This document shows positions 6,076-63,660 of a DNA stretch of 64,000 nucleotides, in pieces; positions within the stretch are counted from its first letter, which is position 1, and each line of letters begins with the position of its first letter. A model generated the notes under the pieces. That model did not search any database. It saw only the letters and a program-made list of their open reading frames with translations, and was not told the DNA's origin. The stretch is from an uncultured Bacteroidota bacterium (GTDB lineage Bacteria > Bacteroidota > Bacteroidia > Bacteroidales > P3). The DNA lies in contig CACZWL010000004.1 of the NCBI GenBank assembly GCA_902784865.1, forward strand, positions 57,802 to 121,801. The letters are read 5' to 3'. The translations under genes were made by a program, and so were the position numbers.

Positions 6076-6142
6076 TAGGTAACTACTAGGTGACAACTAG
6101 GACAATACTTCGACTCTTTCCCCTATTTTCCCTCATTTTCCC
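6076..6142 (-). repeat. Degenerate copy of intergenic repeat family A
   Basis: The gap between two glycosyltransferase genes contains CAATACTTCGACTCTTTCCC followed by CTATTTTCCCTCATTTTCCC. This matches the right flank of the copy at 49605 almost base for base. Upstream there are decayed versions of the 11-bp unit (ACTAGGT, TAGTAGGTAAC). The placement suggests insertion between operon segments rather than a promoter for the next gene, for which no TAnnTTTG box is seen. Confidence 0.6.
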
Positions 6143-6157
6143 AAGAACAACAAAGAA

Positions 6158-7177
6158 ATGCAGGATTTGTTCAGCTATTCGATTGTCATACGGACACTTG
6201 GCAACACCGGCGAGAAATACCGCCGCATGCTGGAGGCCATCAGCCGCCAGACGGTGGCGCCGGAGGAAATCCTCGTGGTCATCCCCCACGGCTACGAACT
6301 GGACCACCAGCTAGGCACCGAGCGCATCGTCCGCTCCGAGAAGGGCATGGTGACCCAGCGCGTGGTGGGTATCCGCGAGGCCAAGGGCGACTACCTGCTG
6401 GTGGTGGACGACGACCTCGACTTTCCGGCCGACTTCGCCGAAAAGCTGCACAACACACTGCAGGCCAAGCAGCTGGACTGCGTGCTCTCCTTCTGCCGCG
6501 GCTGGAGCGAAGGCCACGCCGAGGCCTCGGCACCCTCGAGCGCTCCTGCCGCCCCCCAAAAAACACCGCTGAAACAACAACTTAAATACAAGATACGCAA
6601 TCTGCGCAGCGCCTTCACCGGGCAGGCTTTCTACACCAACCGCCGGTCGAAATACTTTGACGTGACCACCACCACCGCCGGCCACCGCACCTACCTGCGC
6701 GACGAGCAAGGCCTGTGCTCCACGGGCTCGTTCCAATGCTTCTTCATCAAGAACGAGGCCGCCAAGCGGGTGAGGATGGAAGACGAGCTGTGGCTCGAGC
6801 AAGGCACTATCACACGCTATGCCTCGTTCGACGACGGGGTATTCTATTACAAACTCTTCCTGCAGGGCGGCCGCATCGCCTATGCGCAGGACACGGGCTA
6901 CCTGCACCTCGACGCCGCCGCTGGACGACAGGCCACCAACCCCGTGGATGCCAAGCGCATACGCATCTACGCCATGGCCCGCAACCGCATCATTTTCTGG
7001 CACCGCCATATCTGGGGTAGCCACAAGGGCCTCAAGACGCTGGCTGGCGGCATCTACTTCATGACCAACTACTTCGTCTACAACCTGCTGAACAACATCA
7101 CCCCCCGCTACTGGCCCGTGATAGGCGCCATGGCGCAAGGCTACCGCGAGGCATTCCAATTCATCAGAAAGAAATGA
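6158..7177 (+). CDS. Family 2 glycosyltransferase with a divergent DXD motif
   Basis: 339 residues. SIVIRTLGNTGEKYRRMLEA at the N-terminus and VDDDLDF at 83-89 show a GT2-type domain. The usual VDDGS segment is replaced by VVIPHGYE, so this is a divergent member. Residues about 123-140 form a low-complexity Ala/Ser/Pro linker followed by a basic stretch (KQQLKYKIRNLR). The C-terminal part (RNRIIFWHRHIWG, then a hydrophobic YFMTNYFVYNLL) may contact the membrane. The next gene starts inside its stop (ATGA). Confidence 0.82.
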   Translation: MQDLFSYSIVIRTLGNTGEKYRRMLEAISRQTVAPEEILVVIPHGYELDHQLGTERIVRSEKGMVTQRVVGIREAKGDYLLVVDDDLDFPADFAEKLHNTLQAKQLDCVLSFCRGWSEGHAEASAPSSAPAAPQKTPLKQQLKYKIRNLRSAFTGQAFYTNRRSKYFDVTTTTAGHRTYLRDEQGLCSTGSFQCFFIKNEAAKRVRMEDELWLEQGTITRYASFDDGVFYYKLFLQGGRIAYAQDTGYLHLDAAAGRQATNPVDAKRIRIYAMARNRIIFWHRHIWGSHKGLKTLAGGIYFMTNYFVYNLLNNITPRYWPVIGAMAQGYREAFQFIRKK

Positions 7178-7890
7178 TACCCAAAAAGATACACTACTGC
7201 TGGTTTGGCCGCGGCGAGATGCCGCAAGCCGCCAAAGACTGCATGGCCACATGGCGCAAGTACATGCCCGACTGGGAGTACAAGCTGTGGAACGAAGACA
7301 ACTTCGACGTGCATTGCAACGCCTACTGCTCGGAAGCCTACAAGGCTGGTAAATATGCCTTTGTGAGCGATGTGGCGCGACTGAAAGCGCTGCACGACGA
7401 AGGCGGCCTCTACCTCGATACCGACGTGGAGGTGTTCCGTTCCTTCGAGCCCCTGCTGGGCTACCACGCCTTCGCCGGTTTCGAGGGCTGCAAACGGGTG
7501 CTGGTGGCCACCTGCGTCATGGCATCGGAACCCGGCACCGAGTGGGTCCGCGAACAACTCGCCCACTACAACGACCGCCACTTCATACTGCCCGACGGCA
7601 GCCAGGACCACACCACCAACGTGCTCTACATGACCACCCGCATGCGCGAGAACGGCTTCGTGCAGAACGGTCAGGAACAGGACTATAAAGACCTGCATGT
7701 CTTCCCCGTAGACTACTTCAGTCCGCGCCACACCACAGGCGAATACATCCGCACCGAGAACACCTACAGCGACCATCTGGGCATGGGTTCTTGGACCGAC
7801 CGCAACGGACTGATACACAAGTTCGCCCGACTCGTTGGCAGCAAGAACATGACCCGCATCATCAAACTGAAACGAAAACTTCTGGGATGA
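7174..7890 (+). CDS. Family 32 (OCH1/capsular) glycosyltransferase
   Basis: 238 residues. IPKKIHYCWFG at 2-12, YKLWNEDNFDV near 36-46, AFVSDVARLKAL near 62-73 and GGLYLDTDVE near 77-86 are the full signature set of the Gly_transf_sug family, with the DTD motif at 82-84 as metal ligand. Such enzymes add mannose or galactose/GalNAc-type sugars in capsule loci. ATGA overlaps at both ends couple it to the GT2 before and the deacetylase after. Confidence 0.93.
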   Translation: MIPKKIHYCWFGRGEMPQAAKDCMATWRKYMPDWEYKLWNEDNFDVHCNAYCSEAYKAGKYAFVSDVARLKALHDEGGLYLDTDVEVFRSFEPLLGYHAFAGFEGCKRVLVATCVMASEPGTEWVREQLAHYNDRHFILPDGSQDHTTNVLYMTTRMRENGFVQNGQEQDYKDLHVFPVDYFSPRHTTGEYIRTENTYSDHLGMGSWTDRNGLIHKFARLVGSKNMTRIIKLKRKLLG

Positions 7891-8765
7891 GTAACATTAT
7901 ATATAAAGCGCTGCGCTACAGCGGTGCCGCATGGCTATGGCGCGAGACAGTGCAGCGCGGCAAGGCGACCTTCCTGCTCTTCCACGACATGGAGGCCGCC
8001 GACGCCGAGCGCAACTTCGCCTACCTCAAACGGCACTACAACATCATTGGCCTGCAAGACTACCTTCAGGCGGTACACAAAGGCACGAAACTGCCACGCA
8101 AGGCGCTGGTAATCACCTTCGACGATGGACATGCCAGCAACCGCGCTCTGCTGCCCGCACTGCAACGGATGCAGGTGCCGGTAACCATATTCCTATGCTC
8201 GGAAATTGTTGGTACACAACGACACTTCTGGTTCCGCCACAGCGAGGCCAAACCCCAGGTAGAGGCGCTGAAACGCATCCCTAACACAGAGCGCCTACAG
8301 CGGTTGGCCCCCCTGGGATTCAGCCAAGAGAAGGAGTTCGGCGACCGACAGGCACTGACGGCCGACGAAATCGGCGAGATGAAGCACGCGGTCGACTTCC
8401 AGTCGCACACCTGCTTCCACCCCATCCTGCCGCAATGCGACAACGCTACGGCACGGCACGAAATCATAGATTCGAAGCGCCAGCTCGAGGAGCGCTACGG
8501 ATTGGCAATCAATACCCTCTCCTACCCCAACGGCGACTACTCGGAGCGCGACATACGCCTGGCCCGCGAGGCTGGCTACACCTGTGGCGTTACCGTCGAC
8601 GCGGGCTACAACACGCTCCATACCGACCTCTTCCGCCTCAAGCGCTTCTCAGTCAACGACGCCCACACCACCGAGGAACTGATGGTGAAGGCCTGCGGCC
8701 TCTATGCCCTGATTAAACACAAGTTGCACAAGCCGTCCTACGGCTTCAAACCCACACTGCAATGA
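7887..8765 (+). CDS. Polysaccharide deacetylase family protein (NodB/CE4)
   Basis: 292 residues from the ATG overlapping the upstream stop. Motif 1 (VITFDDGHAS) places the catalytic and metal-binding Asp pair at 79-80. Motif 2 (SHTCFHP) supplies the two metal His at 174 and 178. No signal peptide is visible, so it acts in the cytosol or on a membrane-bound intermediate. The likely role is removing N- or O-acetyl groups from a sugar of the repeat unit, giving a free amine. The next gene is formyltransferase-like, which fits a deacetylate-then-acylate sequence, though this is inference. Confidence 0.88.
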   Translation: MSNIIYKALRYSGAAWLWRETVQRGKATFLLFHDMEAADAERNFAYLKRHYNIIGLQDYLQAVHKGTKLPRKALVITFDDGHASNRALLPALQRMQVPVTIFLCSEIVGTQRHFWFRHSEAKPQVEALKRIPNTERLQRLAPLGFSQEKEFGDRQALTADEIGEMKHAVDFQSHTCFHPILPQCDNATARHEIIDSKRQLEERYGLAINTLSYPNGDYSERDIRLAREAGYTCGVTVDAGYNTLHTDLFRLKRFSVNDAHTTEELMVKACGLYALIKHKLHKPSYGFKPTLQ

Positions 8766-9514
8766 AGATAGCCCTCATGTGCAGCCCCTCGCTGGACGAA
8801 TTCCAGCAACAGGCACTGGCCCCGATACTGGAAGACCGAACGATAGAGGTTGTGGAGGCCCTGATTGACTGCCGACCCAAACCGTCGGCCAAGAAGCGAT
8901 TCGTGAAGAACCTCAAGCGCGGCCGCGGCGGCTACATGCTGGTGATGCTCTTCAAGAGCCGCTTCGCCAAGCACCGCCCCTCGGCCGATGCCAAAGGATT
9001 CCTCACCGTCCACGGCGTGAGCGCCGACCGATGCACAGAGACCACAAAACCATACGCCGAGGAAACCATACAGCGGCTAAAGGCTTTGCAGCCCGAAGCG
9101 ATGGTGATGCTGGGCGGTTTCGGCATTGTGAAAGAGCCCCTGCTCTCGCTGGCCCCCGGGGGCATCCTGTCCTACCACCACGGCAACATGCGCAAATACC
9201 GCGGCCAACCGGTGGGATTCTGGGAGCTGTACAACGGCGAGCACGAGATGGGGGTCACTGTTCAGCGTCTGGCCGCTGGCATAGACAAGGGGGTGCCCAT
9301 TGTGGAGAAGACCATCGCCATAGAGAAGGGCGACCGAGTGGAAGCCCTCTGCGCCAGAGCCTTGGACCAGAGTACCGAGATGATGCACGAGGCCCTGCGG
9401 CGAGTGGCTCAGCCCGACTACCGGCCCGAATCCATCGACAACTACGGCCCCGTGTATACCCTGCCCAACCTGCGGCAATACATTATTTTGAAAATCAAAC
9501 TGCTTTTTAGATAA
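8762..9514 (+). CDS. Formyltransferase-like protein (sugar or amino-group N-formylation candidate)
   Basis: 250 residues. The block around 137-175 (SYHHGNMRKYRG, then GVTVQRLAAGIDKG) aligns with the formyltransferase active site, normally N-x-H-(x)n-PxYRG and DxG. The catalytic His (139) and Asp (175) are present, but the usual Asn two residues before the His is Ser137. Either the enzyme tolerates this, as some divergent sugar formyltransferases may, or it has changed function. It is coupled by ATGA to the deacetylase, so a free amino sugar is a natural substrate. There is no second domain as in ArnA or Fmt. Confidence 0.75.
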   Translation: MKIALMCSPSLDEFQQQALAPILEDRTIEVVEALIDCRPKPSAKKRFVKNLKRGRGGYMLVMLFKSRFAKHRPSADAKGFLTVHGVSADRCTETTKPYAEETIQRLKALQPEAMVMLGGFGIVKEPLLSLAPGGILSYHHGNMRKYRGQPVGFWELYNGEHEMGVTVQRLAAGIDKGVPIVEKTIAIEKGDRVEALCARALDQSTEMMHEALRRVAQPDYRPESIDNYGPVYTLPNLRQYIILKIKLLFR

Positions 9515-10918
9515 ATGCTTACATTCCTACCTAAACAGATTGCCGACAAAGGCATCTATCTTTACCTCGGCTCGCTGGCCGCGGTGACGCTCATCTACTT
9601 CAAGCATGCAATGTCGATTGAGTTCATGCTCATCGGTGTGATGTGGGTAGCGGGGTTCTTCACCTTGGCCAACAGGTTCACCAAAGAGTGGCAGGCCATA
9701 CCTGAAAAGAAGTTCATCACGCAACTCTTTATCTACGCCTTGGTGCTGCGCGTGGCATGGGTCTTCTTCAGCTACTACTTCTACAAGGCCAAGACGGGCA
9801 TGCCCTTCGAATTCTTGGCGCGCGATGCCATGATGTACTACTACGTCAGTGTCGACCGCCGAGGTATGTCGTTCATTGACCTATGGAACATATATTTCGT
9901 GAACACACCTTCCGTCTCCGACTCTGGTTACCTCTTTTATCTGACCCTTTTAGCCAAGATCACTGGCGAGAGCATTATCATTCCCCGACTGATCCACAGC
10001 GTATTGAGCGCTTTCTCCGTTGTGCAGGTCTACACCCTTGCCAAGCGCAATATTGGCGATGAAGGCGCCCGCATTGCAGGTATATTTGCCTGTCTCTTCC
10101 CCAACCTGATCTACCACTGCGGCCTGCACATGAAGGAGACCGTGATGGTATTCATTATCACCCTCTTCCTGGAACGCACAGACTATGTGCTTCGCAGCAA
10201 AAAACACATGCTTCCGAACATCGCCTTAATCACAGGACTCATCATATCGATGTTCACCTTCCGCACGGTGCTGGGCGGAGCTGCCATCTTCGCAGTCGCA
10301 TCTGCCCTTCTGTTCTCCAACAGCAAGGTCGTGGGAAAAGCACGACGCTGGATGATGATAGGCTACGCGGCCTTGGCCATCTCCACCCTGGCAGGCGGCA
10401 TCATCATGGCCGAGGTGGAAGATACATGGGGTAACCGAACCGAGAACCTGGAACACAAGCGTATGGTGCAGACCATGCGCGGCAACCAGTGGGCCCAATA
10501 CGCCACCGCCTCGGTAATGGCCCCTATGATTTTCGTGCTGCCGTTCCCGACCATGGTGCACATCTTCGAGCAGGAGAACCAGCTGATGTTCAGCGGCGGC
10601 AACTACGTCCGCAACTTCCTGGGTTGCTTTGTTCTGATAGGCCTGTTCTCGGCCATCTTCATCACAAAGAGGTGGCGAGAATTTGCCCTGATAGGCTCCT
10701 TCGCCGTAGCCTATCTGGGCATCATAGCGACGAGCGGATTCAACAACTCGGAGCGATTTCTGCTGCCAGGCCTGCCGTGCCTACTCATCATAGCGGCCTA
10801 CGGCATCACCCAACTCAACGCAAAAAACATGCGGTTTGTCCGGATATGGTACTATGTGGTGCCGGCCATGGCAGTCGGTTGGGCATTCTTCAAACTGGGT
10901 ACACGAGGAATGATCTGA
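9515..10918 (+). CDS. Polytopic membrane protein, GT-C/PMT-like or polymerase-like
   Basis: 467 residues with roughly 10-12 hydrophobic segments. The early loop contains RDAMMYYY, a possible catalytic Asp. The run PRLIHSVLSAFSVVQVYTLA followed by GDEGARIAGIFACLFPNLIY resembles the central helices of GT-C (PMT/ArnT-type) transferases that use lipid-linked donors. It starts on the base after the previous stop. In this locus it could transfer a sugar on the periplasmic side or act as the polymerase (Wzy role); no other polymerase candidate is visible. The exact family is not certain. Confidence 0.8.
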   Translation: MLTFLPKQIADKGIYLYLGSLAAVTLIYFKHAMSIEFMLIGVMWVAGFFTLANRFTKEWQAIPEKKFITQLFIYALVLRVAWVFFSYYFYKAKTGMPFEFLARDAMMYYYVSVDRRGMSFIDLWNIYFVNTPSVSDSGYLFYLTLLAKITGESIIIPRLIHSVLSAFSVVQVYTLAKRNIGDEGARIAGIFACLFPNLIYHCGLHMKETVMVFIITLFLERTDYVLRSKKHMLPNIALITGLIISMFTFRTVLGGAAIFAVASALLFSNSKVVGKARRWMMIGYAALAISTLAGGIIMAEVEDTWGNRTENLEHKRMVQTMRGNQWAQYATASVMAPMIFVLPFPTMVHIFEQENQLMFSGGNYVRNFLGCFVLIGLFSAIFITKRWREFALIGSFAVAYLGIIATSGFNNSERFLLPGLPCLLIIAAYGITQLNAKNMRFVRIWYYVVPAMAVGWAFFKLGTRGMI

Positions 10919-11010
10919 AAACCAGCAAAGTACAAAAATTATAATTTTTTCGGGCATCGACAATTTTTAGCACTTTCACAAACTACTGGTTACCACAAAC
11001 TTACACCCAC

Positions 11011-11058
11011 CCTCTTCTTCCTCTCTTCGTCATTGGTAGGTAATGGGTAGGAGAAGGG
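11011..11058 (+). repeat. Intergenic repeat module B with two 11-bp units
   Basis: CCTCTTCTTCCTCTCTTCGT is followed by GGTAGGTAATG and GGTAGGAG, two copies of the unit found in family A (complement of ACCTACC) spaced 11 bases apart. It lies in a 165-base gap before a GT4 gene. No convincing promoter box is visible in the rest of the gap. Confidence 0.65.
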
Positions 11059-11083
11059 CAACTGGAACGTTTACAAACAGATT

Positions 11084-12094
11084 ATGAGCAAGATACTGCT
11101 GATATGCAACTACCGCCCCGGTGTGGGCGGCATCTCAGGGCAAGTGGAGATCCTGCAGCGCAAGCTGCGCGAAGAGGGTCACACGGCCGATATATTCAAC
11201 ACAAAAGCATCTGTACTTAAGCGACTTAGCCTCATTGGGAGGTTAAAAGAAATGGGGCGCGGATACGACGTGCTGCACATCCACTGCTGCTCCGACTGGG
11301 GTTTCCTGCCGGCAGTGGTGGGCATCACCGCGGGTCGGCGACTGAGCAAACGCATCGTGCTGACCTACCACGGCGGCGGCGGCGAGCAGTTCTTCGAGAA
11401 GCATACCCGCCTGGTGCGCCACTACCTGACGCGCACCGACCAGAACATCGTGCTCTCCGGATTCCTAGCCAAGGTATTCGAACGCTTCCAACTGCCTTAC
11501 ACCGTCATACCCAACATCATAGAACTTGACCCGGCACTCTTCCGCCAACGCGAGACGCTGAAACCCAACTTTATATGTACCCGCGCCCATGAGCCGCTCT
11601 ACAACATCCCGTGCATCCTACACGCTTTCAAGGAAGTACAGGCAAAACTCCCTGAGGCATCACTGACTCTGGTGGGTGAAGGCTCGGATCACCAACGGCT
11701 GGTGGCGCTAGTCAACGAGATGGGGCTGCGCAACGTGGCCTTCACCGGAAAGGTAGACAACAGCGAAATATACAAGCAGTTGGACAATGCCGACATCTAC
11801 GTCTCCTCCCCCACGGTTGACAATATGCCCGTCTCACTGCTCGAGGCCATGAACGCAGGCCTGCTGGTCATCTCCTCGAGCGTCGGCGGGGTACCCTATA
11901 TTATCCGCAACGGCTCCAATGGCCTGCTTTTCAGAAGCGACGACAGCAGCGAGCTGGCCATGAAGATGCTGTGGACCATTGAAAACCAAGCCATAAGCCA
12001 AACCCTCATCGCGCAGGCGCACCGCGCTGTCAACGCCTACCGATGGGAGAACATAAAAGACAATATTTACGCTGCCTATGGGACTCATTCATGA
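11084..12094 (+). CDS. Family 4 glycosyltransferase
   Basis: 336 residues, GT-B fold. It begins ILLICNYRPGVGGISGQVEIL, a standard GT4 N-terminus with the glycine-rich acceptor-side loop. The C-terminal nucleotide-sugar domain has TLVGEGSDHQRL near 200 and the donor-binding MPVSLLEAMNAGLLVISSSV block near 245-264, the E-x7-E type motif in shortened form. It is cytosolic, with no signal peptide. The next gene overlaps its end by 17 bases, showing a compact operon after the repeat-containing gap. Confidence 0.92.
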   Translation: MSKILLICNYRPGVGGISGQVEILQRKLREEGHTADIFNTKASVLKRLSLIGRLKEMGRGYDVLHIHCCSDWGFLPAVVGITAGRRLSKRIVLTYHGGGGEQFFEKHTRLVRHYLTRTDQNIVLSGFLAKVFERFQLPYTVIPNIIELDPALFRQRETLKPNFICTRAHEPLYNIPCILHAFKEVQAKLPEASLTLVGEGSDHQRLVALVNEMGLRNVAFTGKVDNSEIYKQLDNADIYVSSPTVDNMPVSLLEAMNAGLLVISSSVGGVPYIIRNGSNGLLFRSDDSSELAMKMLWTIENQAISQTLIAQAHRAVNAYRWENIKDNIYAAYGTHS

Positions 12095-13379
12095 ACATAT
12101 CATCCTACCGCTGAGCGACTTGGCAAAAGGCGAAAGCACCCACCGCCACCTGCGCATGCTGAGGCGACTAGAGGCTGCCACTCCCGCAGAAATCGATGCT
12201 TTCCAACGCCAGCGACTGCGCTTGCTGATGGACCACATTGCATCGCAGGTGCCGTTCTACCACGAATGGTTTGCCAAAAACAACCTGAAGCCCAGCGACA
12301 TACAGAACATCAAAGACCTACGCCGCCTGCCTGTCGTGGACAAGGCCACCATGCGGAACATCGGCATCGACCGGTTCAATGCCGAACGCTACGACCCGAA
12401 GAAACGCATGAACGCCCGCTCCAGCGGCTCCACGGGCGAGCCTTTCTCCTTCTATATCAGCAAGGAAGCCTACTCGGTGAACATGGCCGCCAAGCTGCGC
12501 ACGTGGTACCAGGCGGGCTACCGCCTCGGCGACCGCTACATGAAGATTGCCAACGGTGCCCGCCACGGCAAACTGAAGACCCTGCAGGACCGCGTAAACC
12601 GCTGTGTCTATGTTCCTTTCTACTCCATGGGCGACGAGACGCTGGCCACCATCCTGGACCAGATTGAGCGCACTCGACCCTCGTTCATCCGCTCCTACCC
12701 CATGCCGCTGTACCTGCTGGCGCAATACCGCAACAACCACCCGGGCTACAGCTTCACGCCCCGGCATGTGATGACCACCGGCTCGCTCCTGCCCGATGCC
12801 TATCGCGCTGAAATCGAGCGTGCTTTCGGGTGCGATGTCATCGACTCGTACAGCTGCGAGGGCACCCCCAACACCTACGAGACCACGGCACATGACGGCT
12901 ACCACGTCACCGACGCCTACGGCATCATCGAGGTGCTCGACGACGACGGCAAACCCGTCAGCGACGGCGTCGGCCGCGTGGTGAGCACCGACCTCTGGAA
13001 CCTGGCCACACCCTTCGTGCGCTACGACACGCAAGACCTGGTCGAGGTGCGCGGCGGCCGCATACAGCGCATCATGGGCCGCGAGTGCGAGACCCTCATA
13101 GTGGCTGGTGGTCAGCGATATATGGTGCACAACTTCGTGGGTTTCTTCCAGGAGGACGACCGCCCCACCAAGCGCTCGGTCACGGCCTACCAGGTGGTGA
13201 AGCGCAAAAGCGGAGCCATCACCTTCCGCCTGGTGGTCAACGAGCAGTACAACGCTGAAATCGAGCGCTATATCGTCGACTTCTGGCACGAGCGGCTGCA
13301 GGTGCCGATTGACGTGGAGCTCGTGGACGAGATACCCTTGATGAAAAACAACAAACGCCTCACCATCATTGACGAATAG
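12078..13379 (+). CDS. CapK/PaaK-like adenylate-forming enzyme
   Basis: 433 residues. It shows the adenylate-forming signatures SSGSTGEPF near 115-123, an ESYS-like acceptor region (DSYSCEG), and YDTQDLVEV with the ATP-ribose Asp. It matches the phenylacetate-CoA ligase/CapK group found in capsule loci. These proteins are thought to activate a small carboxylic acid for attachment to a sugar or amine. No carrier protein is encoded nearby, so the activated acid and its acceptor are unknown. The hexapeptide acyltransferase two bases downstream is an attractive partner. Confidence 0.88.
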   Translation: MGLIHEHIILPLSDLAKGESTHRHLRMLRRLEAATPAEIDAFQRQRLRLLMDHIASQVPFYHEWFAKNNLKPSDIQNIKDLRRLPVVDKATMRNIGIDRFNAERYDPKKRMNARSSGSTGEPFSFYISKEAYSVNMAAKLRTWYQAGYRLGDRYMKIANGARHGKLKTLQDRVNRCVYVPFYSMGDETLATILDQIERTRPSFIRSYPMPLYLLAQYRNNHPGYSFTPRHVMTTGSLLPDAYRAEIERAFGCDVIDSYSCEGTPNTYETTAHDGYHVTDAYGIIEVLDDDGKPVSDGVGRVVSTDLWNLATPFVRYDTQDLVEVRGGRIQRIMGRECETLIVAGGQRYMVHNFVGFFQEDDRPTKRSVTAYQVVKRKSGAITFRLVVNEQYNAEIERYIVDFWHERLQVPIDVELVDEIPLMKNNKRLTIIDE

Positions 13380-13381
13380 CT

Positions 13382-13879: not shown

Positions 13880-13898
13880 ACCAGAACTATATACTACA

Positions 13899-15670: not shown

Positions 15671-15704
15671 TTCGCACCGAACTGGCTATCAAACATCTAC
15701 CAAC

Positions 15705-15783
15705 CAACCTGCTCAGACCGCTCCAAATCGCACTTGAGTCGAACCATTCACCTACCAGATACCTACCAAACACCTACCAGATG
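15705..15783 (+). repeat. Intergenic repeat family A, full copy
   Basis: Left part AACCTGCTCAGACCG, then CCAAATCGCACTTGAGTCGA, then three direct units ACCTACCAGAT, ACCTACCAAAC and ACCTACCAGAT at an exact 11-base period. The left part is nearly identical to that at 21986 and 63599. It lies in the 145-base gap before the epimerase gene. Confidence 0.85.
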
Positions 15784-15815
15784 CCCATCATCCACCAACC
15801 AATTTCCAACCGCCA

Positions 15816-21985: not shown

Positions 21986-22055
21986 AACCTGTTCAAACCG
22001 CGCCAAATCGCACTTGAGTCGAACTATTCACCTACCAGATACCTACCACATACCT
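21986..22055 (+). repeat. Intergenic repeat family A copy
   Basis: AACCTGTTCAAACCGCGCC, CAAATCGCACTTGAGTCGAA and then ACCTACCAGAT, ACCTACCACAT and a decayed third unit (ACCTGTCCC). It sits directly against the terminator T-run, with the same left part as the copy at 15705. Confidence 0.85.
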
Positions 22056-27661: not shown

Positions 27662-27665
27662 ACAT

Positions 27666-27705
27666 TTTTCCGCGATTTTCCCATTGGTGGGAAAATCGCG
27701 GAAAA
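27666..27705. terminator. Bidirectional hairpin between ssb and pgi
   Basis: TTTTCCGCGATTTTCCCA (27666-27683) pairs perfectly with 27688-27705 around TTGG, an 18-bp stem starting five bases after the ssb stop. Its T/A ends suit termination in both directions. Confidence 0.8.
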
Positions 27706-27713
27706 TGTCCTAT

Positions 27714-27755
27714 CATTCACCTACCAGATACCTACCAGACACCTACCAGGTGCCC
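27714..27755 (+). repeat. Intergenic repeat family A, array only
   Basis: ATTC followed by ACCTACCAGAT, ACCTACCAGAC and ACCTACCAGGT in perfect 11-base register, then GCCC. The long left part seen at 15705 is missing; the ssb/pgi hairpin with its TTTTCCCA stem stands in its place. Confidence 0.85.
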
Positions 27756-41705: not shown

Positions 41706-41766
41706 GGAATGTTAATAGATGTTAAACAAGGGTGCGTTTAACATCTATTAACATTCCGTTTTTTTG
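41706..41766. terminator. Strong terminator with a 22-bp perfect stem
   Basis: The arm 41706-41727 (GGAATGTTAATAGATGTT...) is perfectly complementary to 41736-41757 around an 8-base loop, followed by G and T7. It begins 37 bases after the Sel1 gene. The A/T-rich long stem is unlike the shorter GC stems of other terminators in the window. Confidence 0.85.
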
Positions 41767-41767
41767 T

Positions 41768-41816
41768 CACCTACCAGAGTCGAACCATATACCTACCATT
41801 CACCTACCAGATGGCT
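41768..41816 (+). repeat. Rearranged copy of intergenic repeat family A
   Basis: ACCTACCAGAGTCGAACCAT is followed by ACCTACCATTC and ACCTACCAGAT. The GAGTCGAAC word normally to the left of the array lies inside it, as if one unit had been moved or lost. The copy directly follows a terminator, as do the copies at 21986 and 27714. Confidence 0.75.
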
Positions 41817-42063
41817 TAAATGACTGAATATTAACCATATAAACATATCAAACTGTTATACAGCCGCTTACAGCGTCCGAAACCCCTCCGCGACCCCTGA
41901 TGACCCCTCCGACGAAACTCTCGAAAACAGGCCGCCAACTTTCCTAATAAATGTTAAAAAGGGCGTTTTTGGAGTTTTTACGCCCTGTTTTCGGAATTTC
42001 GGCCGGCAGGATATGGCGAGGGGGCACACAATAAAAGAGAAGGTCGCGCGTTATGTGTGTTGT
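41817..42063 (+). other. Intergenic sequence before the SDR gene
   Basis: A/T-rich first half, then a GC-rich stretch with repeated CGACCCCT/GACCCCTCCGA words (near 41890-41920) and an AGGGCG/CGCCCT inverted repeat (41958-41984). No clear TAnnTTTG promoter and no protein-like small frame is visible. Confidence 0.4.
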
Positions 42064-48273: not shown

Positions 48274-48276
48274 GCC

Positions 48277-49604: not shown

Positions 49605-49653
49605 GCATCTGGTAGGTATCTGGTAGGTATCTGGTAGGTGAATACTTCGACTC
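49605..49653 (-). repeat. Intergenic repeat family A, reverse copy with three units
   Basis: Printed strand: GGTAGGTATCT twice and GGTAGGTG in exact 11-base register, then AATACTTCGACTC and a CCCATCATTTCCCA flank shared with the copy at 6103. This is the best-preserved array and shows the 11-base period most clearly. It lies in the 309-base gap between convergent operons, with hairpins at both ends. Confidence 0.88.
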
Positions 49654-49724
49654 TTTCCCATCATTTCCCATCGGTGGGAAAATAGGGGGACCTTTTTGCC
49701 ACGCGTCTCGAGGGGGGTAAAGAA

Positions 49725-54255: not shown

Positions 54256-54278
54256 GTTCCTTTTCTACTTGAAAATGA

Positions 54279-57200: not shown

Positions 57201-58082
57201 CTTGACCAGGATAGACTTGACATCGAGCTCGAGGATTTTCTCGATGTGCTCTTCGGTGAGCTCAACATCGCGCTCTATGATGACTTCCGTTCTTTCCATG
57301 GAGATAACCTCGCCGGTATCCTCATCGACGAAGTCCTCGGTCCATGTCTCGACTACGCGGGCAGCGAGTTGCTTGCCCATGGCTTTCTTGAGGCTGGTCT
57401 TGTTGACCTTGACCTCCTCAGCCAGCTGGAAGATGTCGAGGATGTCTTTATCAGACTCGTAGCCTATAGCACGCAACAGCGTGGTAATCGGCAGCTTCTT
57501 TTTACGATCGATGTACGCATACATGACATTGTTGATGTCGGTCGTAAACTCCATCCACGAGCCTTTGAAAGGAATGATACGGGCAGAGTAAAGCTGCGTA
57601 CCGTTGGAATGGAACTGCGTACCAAAGAACACGCCGGGAGACCTGTGCAACTGCGAAACCACCACACGTTCAGCGCCATTAATGACGAACGTCCCTTTCG
57701 GGGTCATGTACGGAATCATGCCTAGGTAGACATGCTGCTCCAGTGTCTGGAAATCCTCGTTTTCAGGGTCTTTGCAGCTCAGCTTCATTTTGGCTTTGAG
57801 CGGCACACTGTAGGTCAACCCACGCTCGATGCACTCCTCTATAGAGTAGCGCGGCGGGTCGATATAATAATCCAAGAATTCGAGTTCGAAATTGTTTCGC
57901 GCGTCCGTGATGGGGAAATTCTCTTTGAAGACCTTGTACAAACCTTCGTCAAGACGGTTGTCGGGGTTGGTCTCAATCTGGAAAAAGTCCTTGAAAGATT
58001 TGACCTGGATGTCAAGAAAATCCGGGTAATCAAATTTTCGCACCGACGCGAAATTTACTACTGTGGGTTCTTTTTTTGCCAA
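54279..58082 (-). CDS. rpoB: DNA-directed RNA polymerase subunit beta
   Basis: 1267 residues. The start is a TTG ([13 protein letters not shown]); no nearer ATG gives a full N-terminus. The rifampicin pocket ([23 protein letters not shown]) is wild type at the usual resistance positions. The segment usually reading [10 protein letters not shown] has Thr519 in place of the near-invariant Pro (Pro564 in E. coli). The C-terminus ends in the standard [10 protein letters not shown]. An unusual 171-base leader with two inverted repeats separates it from rplL. Confidence 0.98.
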
Positions 58083-58166
58083 GGGACTATAAATTATTCG
58101 TGTTCTATATGTTGATCGCGATTATTGGGAGGGTGTAATCCCACGTGGGGGAGGCAGGTGTCTGTT

Positions 58167-58228
58167 GTGGAATATATTCCACGGCAACAAGGAATAGGCA
58201 CTCCAGTCCTTGCTGGAGGCCCTATTCC
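58167..58228 (-). promoter_or_regulatory. Tandem inverted repeats in the rplL-rpoB spacer
   Basis: Right after rplL, GGAATAGG and CTCCAG (58191-58206) pair with CTGGAG and CTATTCC (58213-58228), a partly imperfect hairpin. Next comes a perfect 16-base palindrome, GTGGAATATATTCCAC (58167-58182), extended by TGTTG/CAACA. Position matches the attenuator/processing region known between these genes in other bacteria. RNase III or partial termination could set the rpoBC to ribosomal-protein ratio here. Confidence 0.65.
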
Positions 58229-58253
58229 TCGTGGATGTTAGAAAGGGGCAACC

Positions 58254-58637
58254 TTACTTCACCTCGACTTCGGCACCAGCCTCTTCGAGGGCTTTCTTCA
58301 GGCTGTCAGCCTCGTCCTTGGAGACGCCTTCCTTGACGGTCTTGGGAGCGCCGTCAACGAGTTCTTTGGACTCCTTGAGGCCCAGGCTGGCCATGTCCTT
58401 AACGGCCTTCACAACGGCCAACTTCTTGGTCTGATCGGGCACACCCTTCAGGATCACGTCGAAGGAGGTCTTCTCCTCGGCGGCAGCAGCGGCACCACCA
58501 GCGGCGGGAGCAGCAACGGCCACAGCGGCGGCGGCGGGTTCAATGCCGTACTCCTCTTTCAGGACGTCAGCAAGTTCTTTAACTTCTTTAACGGTAAGGT
58601 TAACCAGTTCTTCAGCAATAGCTTTGATATCTGCCAT
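58254..58637 (-). CDS. rplL: 50S ribosomal protein L7/L12
   Basis: 127 residues. An N-terminal dimerisation helix ([20 protein letters not shown]), an Ala-rich hinge (about 36-55) and the C-terminal factor-binding domain ([25 protein letters not shown]). It forms the ribosomal stalk with L10, encoded 99 bases upstream. Confidence 0.98.
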
Positions 58638-58736
58638 GACTTTATTGTTTTTTAATGTTTTACAATGTTTTTTAATAATTTTTACTTTTTGGCCTTGTCA
58701 AGGGGGGCCGGCCCTTTGTTTTAACGCTGTTCTTGT

Positions 58737-59261
58737 TTAGCGTTCCTCCAAAGTTTTCAGTACACCGGTAATGGTATTGCCTGCCGACTGGAGCTGAGAA
58801 ACCACGTTCTTGACGGGCGACTGCAGCAGGGCGACCACGTCGGCGATGAGCTCGTTCTTCGACTTGATGTTGACAAGTTCGTCGAGGTGCTCGTGGCCGA
58901 TGTAGAAACACTCTTCGACATAGGCACCTTTGAGAATGGGCTTGGCAGCGTTCTTCTCGGCGGCGCGGAAGTCTTTGATCAGTTTCGCAGGGGCATTGTT
59001 GGTGTTCGAAAGCATTATGGCGGTTTCACCCTTGATCACCTGGAACAACTCGGAATAGTCGAAACCCGACTTCTCGAGAGCCTTGATGAGAAGAGTGTTC
59101 TTTACAACTTCCAGCTTCACCTCTTTGCGGAAGGCGGCACGACGCAGCTTGCTGGTCTGCACCGAATTGAGGCCTCCGATATCTGCAATGTACAGATTCG
59201 GGTAGGACTTAACCTCTTCACACAAGGAATCGATCAGCTGGTCTTTCTGGTCTTTTCTCAT
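58737..59261 (-). CDS. rplJ: 50S ribosomal protein L10
   Basis: 174 residues. RKDQKDQLIDSLCEEVKSY and SGFDYSELFQVIKGETAIM are typical; the C-terminal helix (NVVSQLQSAGNTITGVLKTL) binds L7/L12. In other bacteria L10-L12 represses its own mRNA leader; the 24-base spacer from rplA is short, so any such site would overlap rplA. Confidence 0.97.
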   Translation of the reverse strand: MRKDQKDQLIDSLCEEVKSYPNLYIADIGGLNSVQTSKLRRAAFRKEVKLEVVKNTLLIKALEKSGFDYSELFQVIKGETAIMLSNTNNAPAKLIKDFRAAEKNAAKPILKGAYVEECFYIGHEHLDELVNIKSKNELIADVVALLQSPVKNVVSQLQSAGNTITGVLKTLEER

Positions 59262-59285
59262 AATGTTTCTCTAAATTAAATTGGG

Positions 59286-59981
59286 TTACAAGGTGGCGGC
59301 TTTGGTGTCCACTTTGACGCCGGGGCTCATGGTGCTGCTGATAGCGATGCTCTTCACGTAGGTGCCTTTGGCGGCGCTGGGTTTGAGCTTCACAATCATC
59401 TGGAGCACCTCGCGGGCGTTCTCGACAATCTTCTGGTCGTCGAACGAGCACTTGGCAACGGCGGTATGGATGATACCGAATTTGTCGACCTTGAAGTCGA
59501 TCTTACCAGCCTTGGCTTCCTGAACGGCCTTGCCTACCTCCATGGTGACAGTACCCGTCTTGGGGTTCGGCATGAGTCCGCGGGGACCGAGGATGCGGCC
59601 GAGAGCTCCAATCTTGGGCATGCAACTGGGCATGGTGATAATAACGTCAACGTCGGTCCAACCGCCTTTGATCTTCTCGACATACTCGTCAAGACCATAG
59701 TAGTCGGCGCCGGCATTCTTGGCTTCTTCCTCTTTGTCGGGGGTGCAAAGGACGAGCACGCGGACGGTCTTACCCGTGCCGTGGGGCAGGGTGACGCTAC
59801 CGCGCACCATCTGGTTGGCCTTGCGGGGGTCAACACCCAGACGCACGTCGATGTCGACAGAAGCATCGAACTTCGTGAAGGTAATCTTCTTGACGATGCT
59901 CACAGCCTCTTCGAGCGAGTAGAGTTTGCTGCCGTCAAATTTGGCGATAGCCTCTTTCTGTTTTTTGGTTAATTTTCCCAT
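59286..59981 (-). CDS. rplA: 50S ribosomal protein L1
   Basis: 231 residues from [16 protein letters not shown]; the frame is open further upstream but that part is not L1-like. [19 protein letters not shown] near 124-142 is the L1 signature. It probably also acts as a translational repressor of rplK-rplA, as in other bacteria. Confidence 0.97.
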
Positions 59982-60044
59982 GTTGTCTGTTTTTGTGGTC
60001 AACGCATGCATCGTGTACATGCTACCACTTGTTCATACTTTTTT

Positions 60045-60488
60045 TTACTTGTTCAGGGGGTTCTCACCCGTAACAGTGATACCCATGCTGCGTGCCGTGC
60101 CGGCCACCATGCTCATGGCGCTCTCCACTGTGAAGCAGTTGAGGTCGGGCATTTTGGATTCGGCAATCTGGCGCACTTGCTCCCAGGTGACCGAGGCGAC
60201 CTTGACGCGGTTGGGTTCGCCGGAACCCTTGGCGGCTTTGGACATCTCTTTCAGCTGGACAGCGACAGGAGGGGTTTTCAGTACAAAGTCAAAGGACTTG
60301 TCCGTGTACACAGTGATGATGACGGGCACAACCTTGCCGGCCAAGTCCTGTGTACGGGCGTTGAACTGCTTGCAGAACTCCATGATGTTCACACCCTTCG
60401 CACCGAGAGCCGGTCCGACAGGGGGTGCGGGGTTCGCAGCACCGCCTTTGATTTGCAATTTAATCAATCCTGCAACTTCTTTTGCCAT
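60045..60488 (-). CDS. rplK: 50S ribosomal protein L11
   Basis: 147 residues. [35 protein letters not shown] at the N-terminus is the conserved thiostrepton-binding proline-rich region, and the C-terminal domain binds 23S rRNA. It is 34 bases after nusG in the minus-strand operon. Confidence 0.98.
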
Positions 60489-60522
60489 TGAATTAAATTT
60501 TAAATTAGGTTAGTTGAATCGG

Positions 60523-61068
60523 TTACTGCTCTTTCTCCACCTGCGAGAAGCTCAACTCGAGAGGCGTCTTGCGACCGAAGATTTTGACGGTTACCTTCAA
60601 TTTCTTCTTCTCTTCGTTGACCTCCTCGACCACACCGGTGAAACTGTTGAAGGCACCATCGATGACCTTCACATTCTCGCCGATGATGAAATGGTCCAGT
60701 GCATCGGCACCTTCCAACTGCTCATCCATCTTGCCGAGGATGCGGTTGATTTCGGCCTGACGCATAGGTATGGGCTTGCCTTCGCGCTCGCGCAGGAAGT
60801 CAAGCACATTGGGCAGGTTCTGGATCACCGGGATGATCTCATCGCGCAAGTCGGCCTCGATGATCACATAGCCCGGGAAGTAGTTCCGGTCTTTGACAAC
60901 CTTCTTGCCATTGCGGATGGCAACCACCTGCTCGGTGGGAATCAGCACAGTGGGCACATCTTCGCTCCAGCCACGCTTGGCCATTTCGCTCTCGATGTAC
61001 TCCTTGGCTTTCTTCTCCTTGCCGCTGATTGCTCTGACGACATACCACTTTTTTTCCTGTTGTTCCAT
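60523..61068 (-). CDS. nusG: Transcription termination/antitermination protein NusG
   Basis: 181 residues. The NGN domain begins KWYVVRAISGKEKKAKEYIE, with the RNA polymerase-contacting region NYFPGYVIIEADL. The C-terminal KOW domain is VIDGAFNSFTGVVEEVNEEKK. Standard length. Confidence 0.97.
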   Translation of the reverse strand: MEQQEKKWYVVRAISGKEKKAKEYIESEMAKRGWSEDVPTVLIPTEQVVAIRNGKKVVKDRNYFPGYVIIEADLRDEIIPVIQNLPNVLDFLREREGKPIPMRQAEINRILGKMDEQLEGADALDHFIIGENVKVIDGAFNSFTGVVEEVNEEKKKLKVTVKIFGRKTPLELSFSQVEKEQ

Positions 61069-61191
61069 TTCTTAAAGGCAGTGTAAGGACAGTGAAAATA
61101 AACTTAATTACCCGACCGGACTGTCTTCTGGTTGCCAAGAGTCTCAAAATGTGTTTTGGGAAGCAAGACCCTCGCGCTTTCGCAGCAACCG

Positions 61192-61407
61192 TCAGCCAAT
61201 CAGGTGATAGAAGTTTCCTAACAAACCCTTCCATCCTCCAGACTGGACACCGAAGACGATATCCATCAGGAAGACTATGAGGGCAATCACGATAGAAGCG
61301 ATAGCAACGACCACTGCGCTGCTCTGCAACTCTTTGAACGTGGGCCACGACACTTTGTGCACAAGTTCGTCGTAGCTCGACTTCACATATTCACCAAACT
61401 TTGACAT
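61192..61407 (-). CDS. secE: Preprotein translocase subunit SecE
   Basis: 71 residues, the short single-helix form: an amphipathic N-terminus (YVKSSYDELVHKVSWPTFKELQ) and one membrane helix (about 31-52). It stabilises SecY in the inner membrane. It lies between tRNA-Trp and nusG, the conserved position. Confidence 0.95.
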   Translation of the reverse strand: MSKFGEYVKSSYDELVHKVSWPTFKELQSSAVVVAIASIVIALIVFLMDIVFGVQSGGWKGLLGNFYHLIG

Positions 61408-61430
61408 GTTCTATAAACTAGTTTTATTGG

Positions 61431-61501
61431 CAGGGGCAGAGAGAATCGAACTCCCAACAGCGGTTTTGGAGACCGTCATTATACCATTTAACTATGCCCC
61501 T
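61431..61501 (-). tRNA. tRNA-Trp (CCA anticodon)
   Basis: A 71-base cloverleaf: acceptor arms AGGGGCA and TGCCCCT, anticodon loop CTCCAAA, and a T-arm with GTTCGATTC. CCA is not encoded. It sits between tuf and secE, as in many bacteria. Confidence 0.95.
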
Positions 61502-61505
61502 GTAA

Positions 61506-61533
61506 GTAGGAGCGTACTTGTGTACGCCCCTAC
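61506..61533 (-). other. Hairpin between tuf and tRNA-Trp
   Basis: GTAGGAGCGTAC (61506-61517) pairs with GTACGCCCCTAC (61522-61533) with one mismatch and a 4-base loop. There is no T-tract on the minus strand, so it is more likely a processing or mRNA-stabilising element than a terminator. Confidence 0.6.
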
Positions 61534-61548
61534 GGGTTTTTCTCGGGA

Positions 61549-62736
61549 TTATTCGAGGATCTTGGTCACCTGACCGGAACCGACGGTGCGGCCACCCTCG
61601 CGGATAGCGAAGCGCAGGTTCTCGTTCAGAGCGATGTCGGCGATCAGCTCCACAGTGATCGTCAGGTTGTCGCCAGGCATGACCATCTCGCGGCCTTCGG
61701 GCAGGATGATGGTACCGGTGACGTCAGTGGTACGGAAGTAGAACTGAGGACGATAGTTGTTGTGGAACGGGGTGTGACGACCGCCTTCTTCCTTCTTCAG
61801 GATATAGACAGCAGCCTCGAATTTGTGGTGGGGTTTCACCGAGCCGGGCTTGGCGATAACCATACCGCGACGGATCTCGTTCTTGTCGATACCGCGGAGG
61901 AGCAGACCGACGTTGTCGCCAGCCTCACCCTCGTCGAGGATCTTGCGGAACATCTCGACGCCGGTGACGGTGCTCTTCAGTTTCTCGGCACCCATACCGA
62001 TGATGTCGACGGGGTCGCCAGTGTGGATGATACCGGTCTCGATACGACCAGTGGCAACGGTGCCGCGGCCAGTGATCGAGAAGACGTCCTCGACGGGCAT
62101 CAGGAAGTCCTTATCCACAGCGCGGGTGGGCAGGGGAATCCAGCTGTCGACGGCAGCCATGAGGTCCTCGACGTTCTTGACGCCGCTGGCCTCGCCATTC
62201 AGAGCGGCAAGGGCGGAACCACGGATGACGGGGATATTGTCGCCATCGAAGTCATAGGAGCTGAGGAGCTCGCGGACTTCCATCTCGACGAGGTCGAGCA
62301 GCTCGGGGTCGTCAACAAGGTCGCACTTGTTGAGGAAAACGACGAGCTGGGGAACACCAACCTGACGGGCGAGCAGGATGTGCTCACGGGTCTGGGGCAT
62401 GGGACCGTCGGTGGCGGCCACAACGAGGATAGCACCGTCCATCTGGGCAGCACCGGTAACCATGTTCTTCACATAGTCAGCGTGACCGGGGCAGTCCACG
62501 TGGGCATAGTGGCGGTTCTCAGTCTGATACTCGACGTGAGCGGTGTTGATGGTGATACCACGCTCTTTCTCTTCGGGAGCAGAGTCGATGGAATCGAACG
62601 ATTTAACTTCGGACAGACCCTTCTCGGCGAGCACCTTGGTGATGGCGGCGGTGAGGGTGGTCTTACCATGGTCAACGTGGCCGATAGTACCAATGTTGAC
62701 GTGCGGTTTAGAGCGGTCGAATTTTTCTTTTGCCAT
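61549..62736 (-). CDS. tuf: Elongation factor Tu
   Basis: 395 residues. [18 protein letters not shown] at 16-33 contains the P-loop, DCPGHADY and NKCD are G3 and G4, and the C-terminal barrel ends [13 protein letters not shown]. It delivers aminoacyl-tRNA to the ribosome. It is flanked by tRNA genes on both sides in one transcript. Confidence 0.98.
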
Positions 62737-62854
62737 TGTTTAATACGTATTAAATGTTAACAATAATATTAATTCACGTTCAAAGAGGGCGAGCCTACTG
62801 GCTTGCGTCCTCATACTTTTTGTTTTCCCTGCTGCACTTCGGTGCAAAAAGGAG

Positions 62855-62926
<72 letters not shown>

Positions 62927-63006
62927 TTGTTTTCGTCACTCTCTTTCTTTTCGAGTGCCTTTTGTTCGCGGGGCGGTTCTGGTGGGGTCTGTCCCCGCTG
63001 GCTTGG

Positions 63007-63079
63007 AGCGGAAGACGGGGCTCGAACCCGCCACCTATAGCTTGGAAGGCTATCGCTCTACCAAATGAGCTACTTCCGC
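63007..63079 (-). tRNA. tRNA-Gly (TCC anticodon)
   Basis: A 73-base cloverleaf: GCGGAAG/CTTCCGC acceptor, AGCTCATTTGGTAGAGC D-arm, anticodon loop CTTCCAA, and a T-arm with GTTCGAGCC. Confidence 0.95.
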
Positions 63080-63100
63080 CTGTTGAAGTTGGGCATTTCG

Positions 63101-63182
63101 TGGGGGAGGGTGGACTCGAACCACCGAACTCTTCCGAGGACAGATTTACAGTCTGTTGCAATTGCCACTATGCGACTCCCCC
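63101..63182 (-). tRNA. tRNA-Tyr (GTA anticodon)
   Basis: An 82-base class II tRNA with acceptor GGGGGAG/CTCCCCC, anticodon loop CTGTAAA, a long variable arm (CCTCGGAAGAGTTCGG region) and discriminator A. Confidence 0.95.
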
Positions 63183-63235
63183 ATCTTCTTCTGCTTCCGA
63201 TGCCACTCTATCGTGGCCGCCAGGATTCTCTTTCG

Positions 63236-63308
63236 AGCCGATGAAGGGACTCGAACCCCCGACAGGCTGATTACAAATCAGCTACTCTACCAACTGAGTT
63301 ACATCGGC
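63236..63308 (-). tRNA. tRNA-Thr (TGT anticodon)
   Basis: A 73-base cloverleaf with acceptor GCCGATG/CATCGGC, anticodon loop TTTGTAA and T-arm GTTCGAGTC. It is the first gene of the tRNA-tuf-rpo transcript. Confidence 0.95.
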
Positions 63309-63355
63309 TTCTTTCAACCTTTCAAACAACTCTTCTTTTTCTCGGTTTGAGGTTG

Positions 63356-63363
63356 CAAAGATA
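63356..63363 (-). promoter_or_regulatory. Promoter of the tRNA-tuf-sec-nus-rpl-rpo operon
   Basis: TATCTTTG on the minus strand (63363-63356), about 48 bases before the tRNA-Thr 5' end, in a T-rich context. It is the only strong box upstream of the 13.5-kb run of minus-strand genes; internal promoters cannot be excluded. Confidence 0.75.
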
Positions 63364-63598
63364 CTACTTTTTTCCAAAACAGAAAAAAGTTTTTTTGATT
63401 TTTTGCATTATTTTTTCTTAATCGGCTGATTATCCGATATATAAAATTAACACTTTTTTCAACACCACTACCCTTCCGCCCGCAAAAACACCTCCTTCGG
63501 CATCTTTCTCCACCCCAAATTGCCCCCTCTCTGTCCCTTTTTTGCCGTTTTTAATGCGAAAAACTTGTAACATGCTGATTATCATCAATCTGGGCACT
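63364..63598. other. A/T-rich intergenic sequence upstream of the tRNA operon
   Basis: Contains T-rich and A-rich runs likely to act as an UP-type element for the tRNA promoter (63364-63425), then mixed sequence with no promoter, hairpin or protein-like frame that I can support. Confidence 0.4.
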
Positions 63599-63660
63599 AA
63601 CCTGTTCAAATCGCGCCAAATCGCAGCGGAGTCGAAGGATTCTCCTGCCAGATACCTAGG
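63599..63660 (+). repeat. Decayed copy of intergenic repeat family A
   Basis: The left part AACCTGTTCAAATCGCGCCA and AAATCGCAGCGGAGTCGAAG is well kept; the array is reduced to TCCTGCCAGAT and ACCTAGGAGGT. It shows that the left part and the 11-base array decay independently. Confidence 0.75.

What the first reader, a model, noticed from the sequence alone, without database searches (positions are those of the whole stretch)
6076..63660. Undescribed-looking family of intergenic elements built from 11-bp direct repeats (ACCTACCAGAT)
Copies at 15705-15783, 21986-22055, 27714-27755, 41768-41816, 49605-49653 (reverse), 63599-63660 (decayed) and 6076-6142 (decayed, reverse) share a left part (CAAATCGCACTTGAGTCGAA) and/or an array of up to three ACCTACCAGAT units. 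The period is exactly 11 bases, close to one helical turn, so repeated sites would face the same side of the DNA. That is how iterons and multi-site operators are built, not how REP palindromes or CRISPRs are. All copies are intergenic, several sit directly against terminators, and both orientations occur. No transposase is linked. A chromosomal protein-binding array (nucleoid, segregation, transcription-end or phage-derived function) would explain the pattern.
Basis: seen in the sequence. Interest (0 to 1): 0.72.

Follow-up and report, generated by a model that had tools for sequence, protein, structure and literature searches.

The report
Species-specific phased DNA ladder between genes
A gut bacterium carries on the order of a hundred short DNA elements between its genes, each built of repeats spaced about one helical turn apart; related species have elements at several of the same places and in the same orientation but spelled differently, which hints at a chromosome-binding system whose recognition sequence keeps changing, though a selfish repeat is not ruled out.

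Summary
The window lies in a 2.40 Mb genome whose namable relatives are gut Bacteroidales MAGs. The double unit has 219 matches (<=3 mismatches) against 2 for the reversed control; the core GTCGAANNATTCACCTACC has 87 exact copies against 0. In a 580 kb sample 44 of 45 hits are intergenic. Types A/B have a left part with 10-bp periodicity and a right part of 11-bp units, most often three. Relatives G106, G023 and G001 have families of the same anatomy but other spelling. Across orthologous gene pairs the element is in both species 11 times (9 distinct sites), in one 6 times, in neither 88 times, orientation the same 11 of 11. Copies at shared sites are no closer to each other (0.61-0.65) than to other copies of the other species, and mostly closer to their own genome's copies: concerted evolution. 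Orientation agrees with T/A skew, a replication proxy, in 67 of 90 copies. Best reading: a polar multi-site protein-binding element with species dialects. Close rival: a selfish REP/MITE-like repeat. Function is inferred; no binder identified.

The parts
15708..15782 (+). Type A element: left 10-bp ladder, joint AGTCGAACCATTC, three 11-bp units (15750-15782)
   Evidence: no ladder in the 11 relatives whose spacer was printed (G120 has other sequence there); gap 1 in G023
21990..22055 (+). Type A element after a hairpin/T-run; two clear units (22030-22051)
27663..27751 (+). B-like element: near-perfect hairpin 27663-27707, then three 11-bp units 27719-27751, between convergent SSB- and PGI-family genes
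   Evidence: same site occupied in G001, G106, G023, same orientation
41710..41970 (+). Class C element: hairpin, ladder ACCTACCAGAG-TCGAACCATAT-ACCTACCATTC-ACCTACCAGAT (41769-41812), AACTTTCCTAATAAATGTTAA end facing the downstream gene
   Evidence: 14 of 14 class C copies with both neighbours known (15 found) are codirectional with the downstream gene
49607..49690 (-). Type B element: palindromic left part and three identical ACCTACCAGAT units (49607-49639), after a hairpin/T-run
63604..63660 (+). Decayed type A element (TTCAAATCGCGCCAAATCGC..AGTCGAAGGATTC..)
6076..6142 (-). Decayed type B element between two glycosyltransferase-family genes
   Evidence: same site and orientation occupied in G023 by its own dialect

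Best explanation
The element is a polar, multi-subunit protein-binding site of the chromosome. Two ladders, of about 10 bp and 11 bp period, put repeated contacts on one face of the DNA over about seven helical turns; a joint (AGTCGAAG-like in many copies) fixes polarity. About a hundred copies per genome sit between genes, oriented mainly with the T-rich (probably leading) strand, and many are held at the same sites and in the same orientation in related species while one binder per species keeps the copies in one dialect. Shown: anatomy, copy number, intergenic placement, shared sites and orientation, dialects, concerted evolution, skew bias. Inferred: the binder, binding itself, and a role tied to replication direction or segregation.
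For: Left-part autocorrelation peaks at lag 10 in three species (z 4.4, 4.8, 5.7), the right part at 11 (z 8.3, 9.6, 8.4). CCTA spacings up to 16 bases are 11 in 165 of 168; three units in 16 of 25, 21 of 29, 19 of 27 (G023 copies were chosen by joint and first unit only and give 50 of 50). Shared sites: 11 both / 6 one / 88 neither, pooled p=2e-10, species pairs not independent; 9 distinct sites; orientation same in 11 of 11 comparisons. Identity at shared sites 0.61-0.65, to other copies of the other species 0.60-0.71, to own copies 0.61-0.92 (0.77 or more in 9 of 10, 5 of 6 pairs computed). Orientation agrees with TA3 skew in 67 of 90, p=2.9e-5, while genes do not (542/493 vs 200/184). Orientation coherent along contigs (p 0.002, 0.031, 0.0008).
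Against: No binding protein was identified, nor was there a systematic search for one. Cross-species identity (0.61-0.67) is little above the shuffled control (0.58), so kinship of the families rests on shared sites, CCTA units and the joint, not on overall identity. Some sites are empty in relatives. Orientation bias and 3'-side preference are also expected of ssDNA mobile repeats. The skew test was chosen after GC skew failed; neighbouring copies are not independent; single genomes give p=0.06 (G000, G023) or cannot be tested (G106, all TA3>0). rpoC and an elongation-factor motif agree with a T-rich leading strand, atpD does not. Where gene direction and TA3 conflict copies follow TA3 15 to 9; flanking genes are coherent in G106 too (18/6). 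Left modules switch type at a fixed site, which implies DNA copying.
Confidence: 0.46

Rival explanations
1. A selfish, non-autonomous repeat (REP/MITE-like) spread by a transposase acting on single-stranded lagging-strand template; ladders are transposase binding sites; old copies are homogenised by conversion or by re-insertion into existing copies.
For: Dispersed similar copies, empty sites in other relatives, strand bias, preference of types A/B for the 3' side of genes (upstream gene sense in 20 of 28), left-module switching at a fixed site. RAYT genes over the cut-off in G000, G023 and G106 lie a median 3.1 kb from the nearest exact core; random places on the same contigs do as well in 804 of 20000 trials (11 genes, some neighbours).
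Against: The RAYTs whose flanks I read (2 of 2 in G000, 3 of 6 in G023) are directly flanked by other repeats. No transposase family among ten window genes beside copies; other transposases were not searched for. Nine shared sites with orientation the same in 11 of 11 comparisons and constant 3 x 11 bp anatomy under sequence change are not what decaying selfish DNA would show.
Confidence: 0.39
2. Rho utilisation (rut) or other RNA-level terminator element: evenly spaced C-rich units in the 3' region of transcripts.
For: C-rich, G-poor strand in G106 (C 0.39, G 0.12) and less so G000 (0.29, 0.18); 20 of 28 A/B copies follow a sense gene; 11-nt spacing suits Rho (recalled).
Against: G023 elements are not C-rich (C 0.24, G 0.22); 8 of 28 copies are antisense to or divergent from the gene upstream; antisense orientation is shared between species at two sites; the 10-bp left ladder has no obvious RNA meaning; one copy separates two genes that abut in relatives.
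Confidence: 0.08
3. Operators of a DNA-binding regulator (OmpR/PhoB-type 7+4 bp direct repeats), with class C the true operators and A/B decoys.
For: Unit ACCTACC+4 looks like PhoB-type 11-bp repeats (recalled); class C is upstream and codirectional in 14 of 14.
Against: A/B copies lie mostly behind genes; the ten window genes tested beside copies show no common function.
Confidence: 0.07

Closest known systems
REP/BIME elements with RAYT (TnpA-REP)
   Same: short, dispersed, intergenic, often behind genes, family differs between species; ssDNA mobility suggested (PMC6006769 passages; PMC3733652 abstract)
   Different: type A and the G023 copies show direct repeats, not a hairpin with a GTAG-type foot; RAYTs read here are flanked by other repeats; phased ladders; shared sites with dialects
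DNA uptake sequence dialects of Neisseriaceae (PMC3630211, listing with start of abstract only)
   Same: genome-wide short motif that differs by lineage as a dialect
   Different: DUS is a single short motif (recalled); here a ~75-bp polar multi-site element, about one exact core per 20-28 kb
KOPS / AIMS polar sequences (PMC5993296, PMC2533119, listing with start of abstract only)
   Same: orientation follows replication
   Different: those are single octamers, also in genes (recalled); here long intergenic arrays, and strand assignment rests on a proxy
Plasmid iterons and parC-type 11-bp repeats (recalled)
   Same: tandem helically phased binding sites
   Different: dispersed over the chromosome
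BOX elements of pneumococcus (recalled)
   Same: modular intergenic repeat with variable inner copies
   Different: no 10/11-bp phasing known to me

Membership tests
REP/RAYT | Copies directly flank the cognate RAYT gene | tested here: not met
   2 of 2 G000 RAYTs and 3 of 6 in G023 read; directly flanked by other repeats. Nearest cores lie 1.1-10 kb away in these two genomes; nearness to cores, G106 included, matched by random places in 804 of 20000 trials
REP/RAYT | Imperfect palindrome with GTAG/GTGG-type tetranucleotide at its foot | tested here: inconclusive
   Read by eye only: type A and G023 copies show direct repeats; type B hairpin is partial; no tetranucleotide or fold search was run
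REP/RAYT | Intergenic, high copy | tested here: met
   44 of 45 hits intergenic; 87 exact cores
MITE | Terminal inverted repeats and target-site duplication | tested here: inconclusive
   Class C has AAATGTTAA-type ends (by eye); none seen in A/B; no alignable empty site for a duplication
CRISPR | Repeats separated by unique spacers | tested here: not met
   Units abut at 11 bp
Retron/DGR product | Reverse transcriptase in the genome | tested here: not met
   PF00078 not found at E<=0.001 in G000, G001, G106, G015; 2 hits in G023
KOPS-like polar element | Orientation bias along replichores | tested here: inconclusive
   67 of 90 with TA3 skew; replichores not mapped
Rho rut site | C-rich, G-poor sense RNA | tested here: not met
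   C over G in G106 and G000, not in G023
Iteron/multi-site operator | Specific protein binding | not testable with these tools
   needs pull-down or footprint
DNA uptake sequence | Raises DNA uptake in competent cells | not testable with these tools
   needs cultures

The most novel reading that the evidence does not exclude
A chromosome-organising element with dialects: about a hundred largely fixed, replication-oriented multi-turn protein docking sites per genome, whose sequence is rewritten throughout the genome in each species together with its binder, by copying into existing sites, without moving them.
Probability: 0.34. Interest if true: 0.86.

Novelty: new variant of a known kind. Interest (0 to 1): 0.7.

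Why it matters
Dispersed bacterial repeats are usually treated as mobile debris. Here about a hundred short elements per genome appear, at the sites that could be compared, to keep place, orientation and anatomy while their sequence is replaced in each species. That gives a tractable case of concerted evolution in a bacterial chromosome and a clear target for finding a fast-evolving DNA-binding partner. If the skew bias is truly replication, it could reveal how chromosomes of an uncultured gut group are oriented or segregated.

Tried and rejected
RAYT as mover: Y1 genes exist (2 in G000, 6 in G023) but those read carry other REPs directly beside them; a weak nearness to cores remains, so this is weakened, not closed. 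Reverse transcriptase: PF00078 not found in three of the four clade members. Phage link: two exact patterns, 0 viral contigs. Rfam at gathering scores: five tRNAs only in the window. Local GC skew as replication marker: follows gene direction, gave nothing; I then turned to third-position T/A skew averaged over both gene strands, seen and tested, so that test was chosen after a look at the data. Exact double-unit pattern in genome contigs: 0; a looser one hit two gut MAGs. Motif in print: 153 papers hold one of the two strings, the 20 listed look unrelated by title; searches showed no description of this family among the papers listed, by title; one search was too broad to be useful.

Rows dropped before counts: class C and edge copies from A/B tables; in-gene hits (one G023 copy at C27:82420 counted as in-gene because a gene call ends inside it); 4 of 29 G000 A/B copies without a ladder anchor; some G106 anchors are off, which lowers its own-copy identity; the G023 list is the first 100 of 112. 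One search ended with an error after printing the counts quoted. In one search, 16 of 30 loci at site 1 and 10 of 30 at site 2 did not show both flanks. The A/B classifier also labels class C copies of G000 as A, so I use for G000. In one search, gene pairs with too little room in both species were left out. G015 copies (5) are in the 90; G015 and G135 are not in the shared-site counts.
Full report
Observation. The seven listed copies are present. In the window ACCTACCAGAT (<=2 mismatches) occurs 32 times against 10.9 in shuffles. In the whole genome (G000, 2.40 Mb, 43 contigs) the double unit has 219 matches and its reversed control 2. The core GTCGAANNATTCACCTACC has 87 exact copies, control 0. 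In 24 genomes of other families of the order the double unit was not found.

Anatomy. In a 580 kb sample (24% of the genome) I found 45 core hits; 44 are intergenic and the one in a gene has no ladder (intergenic means not more than 15 bases inside a gene of my own hexamer caller, coding fractions 0.82-0.92). Three left parts occur: A (direct repeats CAAATCGC), B (palindrome around CCCATCGATGGG) and C; 12 A, 17 B, 15 C. In A and B an AGTCGAA(G/C)-like stretch joins them to 11-bp units. The left part peaks at lag 10 in G000, G023 and G106, the right part at lag 11. CCTA spacings of up to 16 bases are 11 in 55 of 57, 50 of 50 and 60 of 61, and three units is the mode in each species. G000 and G106 copies were partly chosen by their ladder; G023 copies only by joint and first unit, so its figure is the least biased.

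Class C is about 270 bp; long alignments between copies are about 70-91% identical. It holds a hairpin, the ladder, and the palindrome AACTTTCCTAATAAATGTTAA. All 14 copies with both neighbours known point at the downstream gene. The AACTTT motif also occurs without the ladder, for example before a gene I read as rpsO in G068 (by eye, from recall), so class C may be a ladder fused to a separate promoter motif. G001, G106 and G023 hold class C-like elements with their own ladder spelling (by eye).

Family and dialects. ACCTACN5 x3 (one mismatch) occurs in 29 of 120 genus genomes, several with a single match; the reversed control occurs in 6 (one of them, G135, with 46 hits). That search required ACCTAC, so it cannot show how conserved ACCTAC is. 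K-mer counts without a preset motif show dispersed families of their own in G106 (TTCCCCTACCG)n behind TACCATAAGCTTCCATATCC, G023 (ACCTACCGGAT)n behind GTCCATAAGCGTTCATATCGG, G015 (an 11-bp ladder of other sequence) and G135 (different repeats); in 100 kb of G001 they showed only simple repeats, and its copies were found through synteny and by pattern. Cores: G106 84 exact copies, G023 112, controls 0.

Same sites, different spelling. Reciprocal-best gene pairs in the sampled parts of four genomes: element in both 11, in first only 5, in second only 1, in neither 88 (pooled p=2e-10; species pairs are not independent); 9 distinct sites; orientation the same in 11 of 11. Two of the five G000-only sites are class C. 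Antisense orientation is shared too (two sites). At G000 C4:15408-15552 all four clade members carry an element, while 16 further genus members with both flanks found have gaps of 3-73 bases and no ladder, two of them with other short repeats. At the window's SSB/PGI site the four carry elements; of ten further members with both flanks, G117, G035, G084, G120, G074 and G090 show hairpin-like or other short sequence, G014 almost no gap, G091 a long spacer without a clear ladder, and G008 and G107 a long hairpin of related-looking units. Elements at shared sites are 0.61-0.65 identical, no closer than to other copies of the other species (0.60-0.71); medians to copies in their own genome are 0.61-0.92, 0.77 or more in nine of ten, the lone 0.61 being a G106 copy where anchoring was poor. 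Shuffled sequence gives 0.58, so overall identity alone does not prove kinship between species; shared sites, the CCTA units and the joint (in G023 and some G106 copies) do that work. Left modules also switch at a fixed site: B in G000 and G001, A in G106 and G023; G023 has 26 A and 0 B, G106 27 A and 4 B by a simple classifier. Point mutation alone hardly turns A into B, so copying into existing sites is likely.

Orientation. Neighbouring copies share orientation more than shuffles (40/17, 37/22, 46/19; p 0.002, 0.031, 0.0008). Orientation agrees with the sign of third-position T/A skew in 67 of 90 copies (p=2.9e-5) and 53 of 66 where skew exceeds 0.1; genes show no such link. I chose this proxy after GC skew failed. 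Neighbouring copies are not independent. By genome, G000 and G023 are each at p=0.06, G106 (24 plus, 3 minus, all TA3>0) and G015 cannot be tested. rpoC and an elongation-factor motif agree with a T-rich leading strand, atpD does not (motifs recalled). Flanking genes are coherent in G106 (18/6) but not in G023 (8/11) or G000 (14/11); in the regression the left gene has about half the weight of skew.

Movers. Y1 transposases (RAYT) occur in 73 of 120 genus genomes. Both in G000 and three of six in G023 are directly flanked by other repeats. Yet the 11 RAYTs over the cut-off in G000, G023 and G106 lie a median 3.1 kb from the nearest exact core, matched by random places in 804 of 20000 trials. 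That is weak, some are neighbours, but it speaks for the rival, and I moved two points from the best reading to it. Other transposases were not searched for.

What it most likely is. Phasing over about seven turns at two periods, kept while sequence changes, points to protein lined up on one DNA face rather than to RNA. Shared sites and orientation argue for use. The dialect pattern argues for one binder per species. The rival, a selfish repeat whose ladders are transposase sites and which spreads on lagging-strand template, explains strand bias, gene-end preference and empty sites, but needs an unseen mover and a way to rewrite old copies. Both need copying between copies. I put them at 0.46 and 0.39.

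Known systems. The pattern works like DUS dialects in being lineage-wide (PMC3630211, listing with start of abstract), like KOPS in polarity (PMC2533119, PMC5993296, listing), and like REPs in dispersal (PMC6006769 passages; PMC3733652 abstract). It is not shown to be a member of any of them. Searches showed no description of it among the listed titles of the open-access library; subscription papers are not covered.

Noticed in passing
L093 12560-13600 and L050 7720-8350 (G000:C5): Two RAYT (Y1_Tnp) genes, each directly flanked by its own REP-like repeats (GCCCCGTAGGGGC with CGTGGGCGATGCCCACGG; CAGGGGTTNNAACCCCTG), unrelated in sequence to the ladder family.
   Followed up: partly
L116, L119, L121-L124, L127-L131, L136, L138, L142, near the match in each: Palindromic motif AACTTTCCTAATAAAAGTTAA or close variants in many genus members, in several loci shortly upstream of a Bacteroidetes-type promoter (rpsO-like gene in G068 and G023, by eye); looks like a separate regulatory site.
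   Followed up: partly
L107 12198-12506, L153 566-941, L154, L155 (G135): A different dispersed family: AATTAGATCGTGCACGATCTAATT with CGAATTACTCGAA repeats; G135 also has 46 hits of the reversed control pattern.
   Followed up: no
L221, L226 (G008, G107), spacer at the SSB/PGI site: Long hairpins built from units like CCCTATCAACTCCTACC next to GGTAGGGG; possibly the family's form in another clade.
   Followed up: no
G000:C1 40250-40998 and 96634-97381: A 755-bp duplication, 88% identical, in stretches without called genes; it contains a class C element and extends beyond it.
   Followed up: no
window 63678-63720: Short array of TTCTAGA-like repeats just behind the decayed element at 63604.
   Followed up: no
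L156-L159 (G015): Own dispersed family with 11-bp ladder GTTCGACCTC-AATACGACCTT-AACCCCTCTTT; may be a distant relative or convergent.
   Followed up: partly
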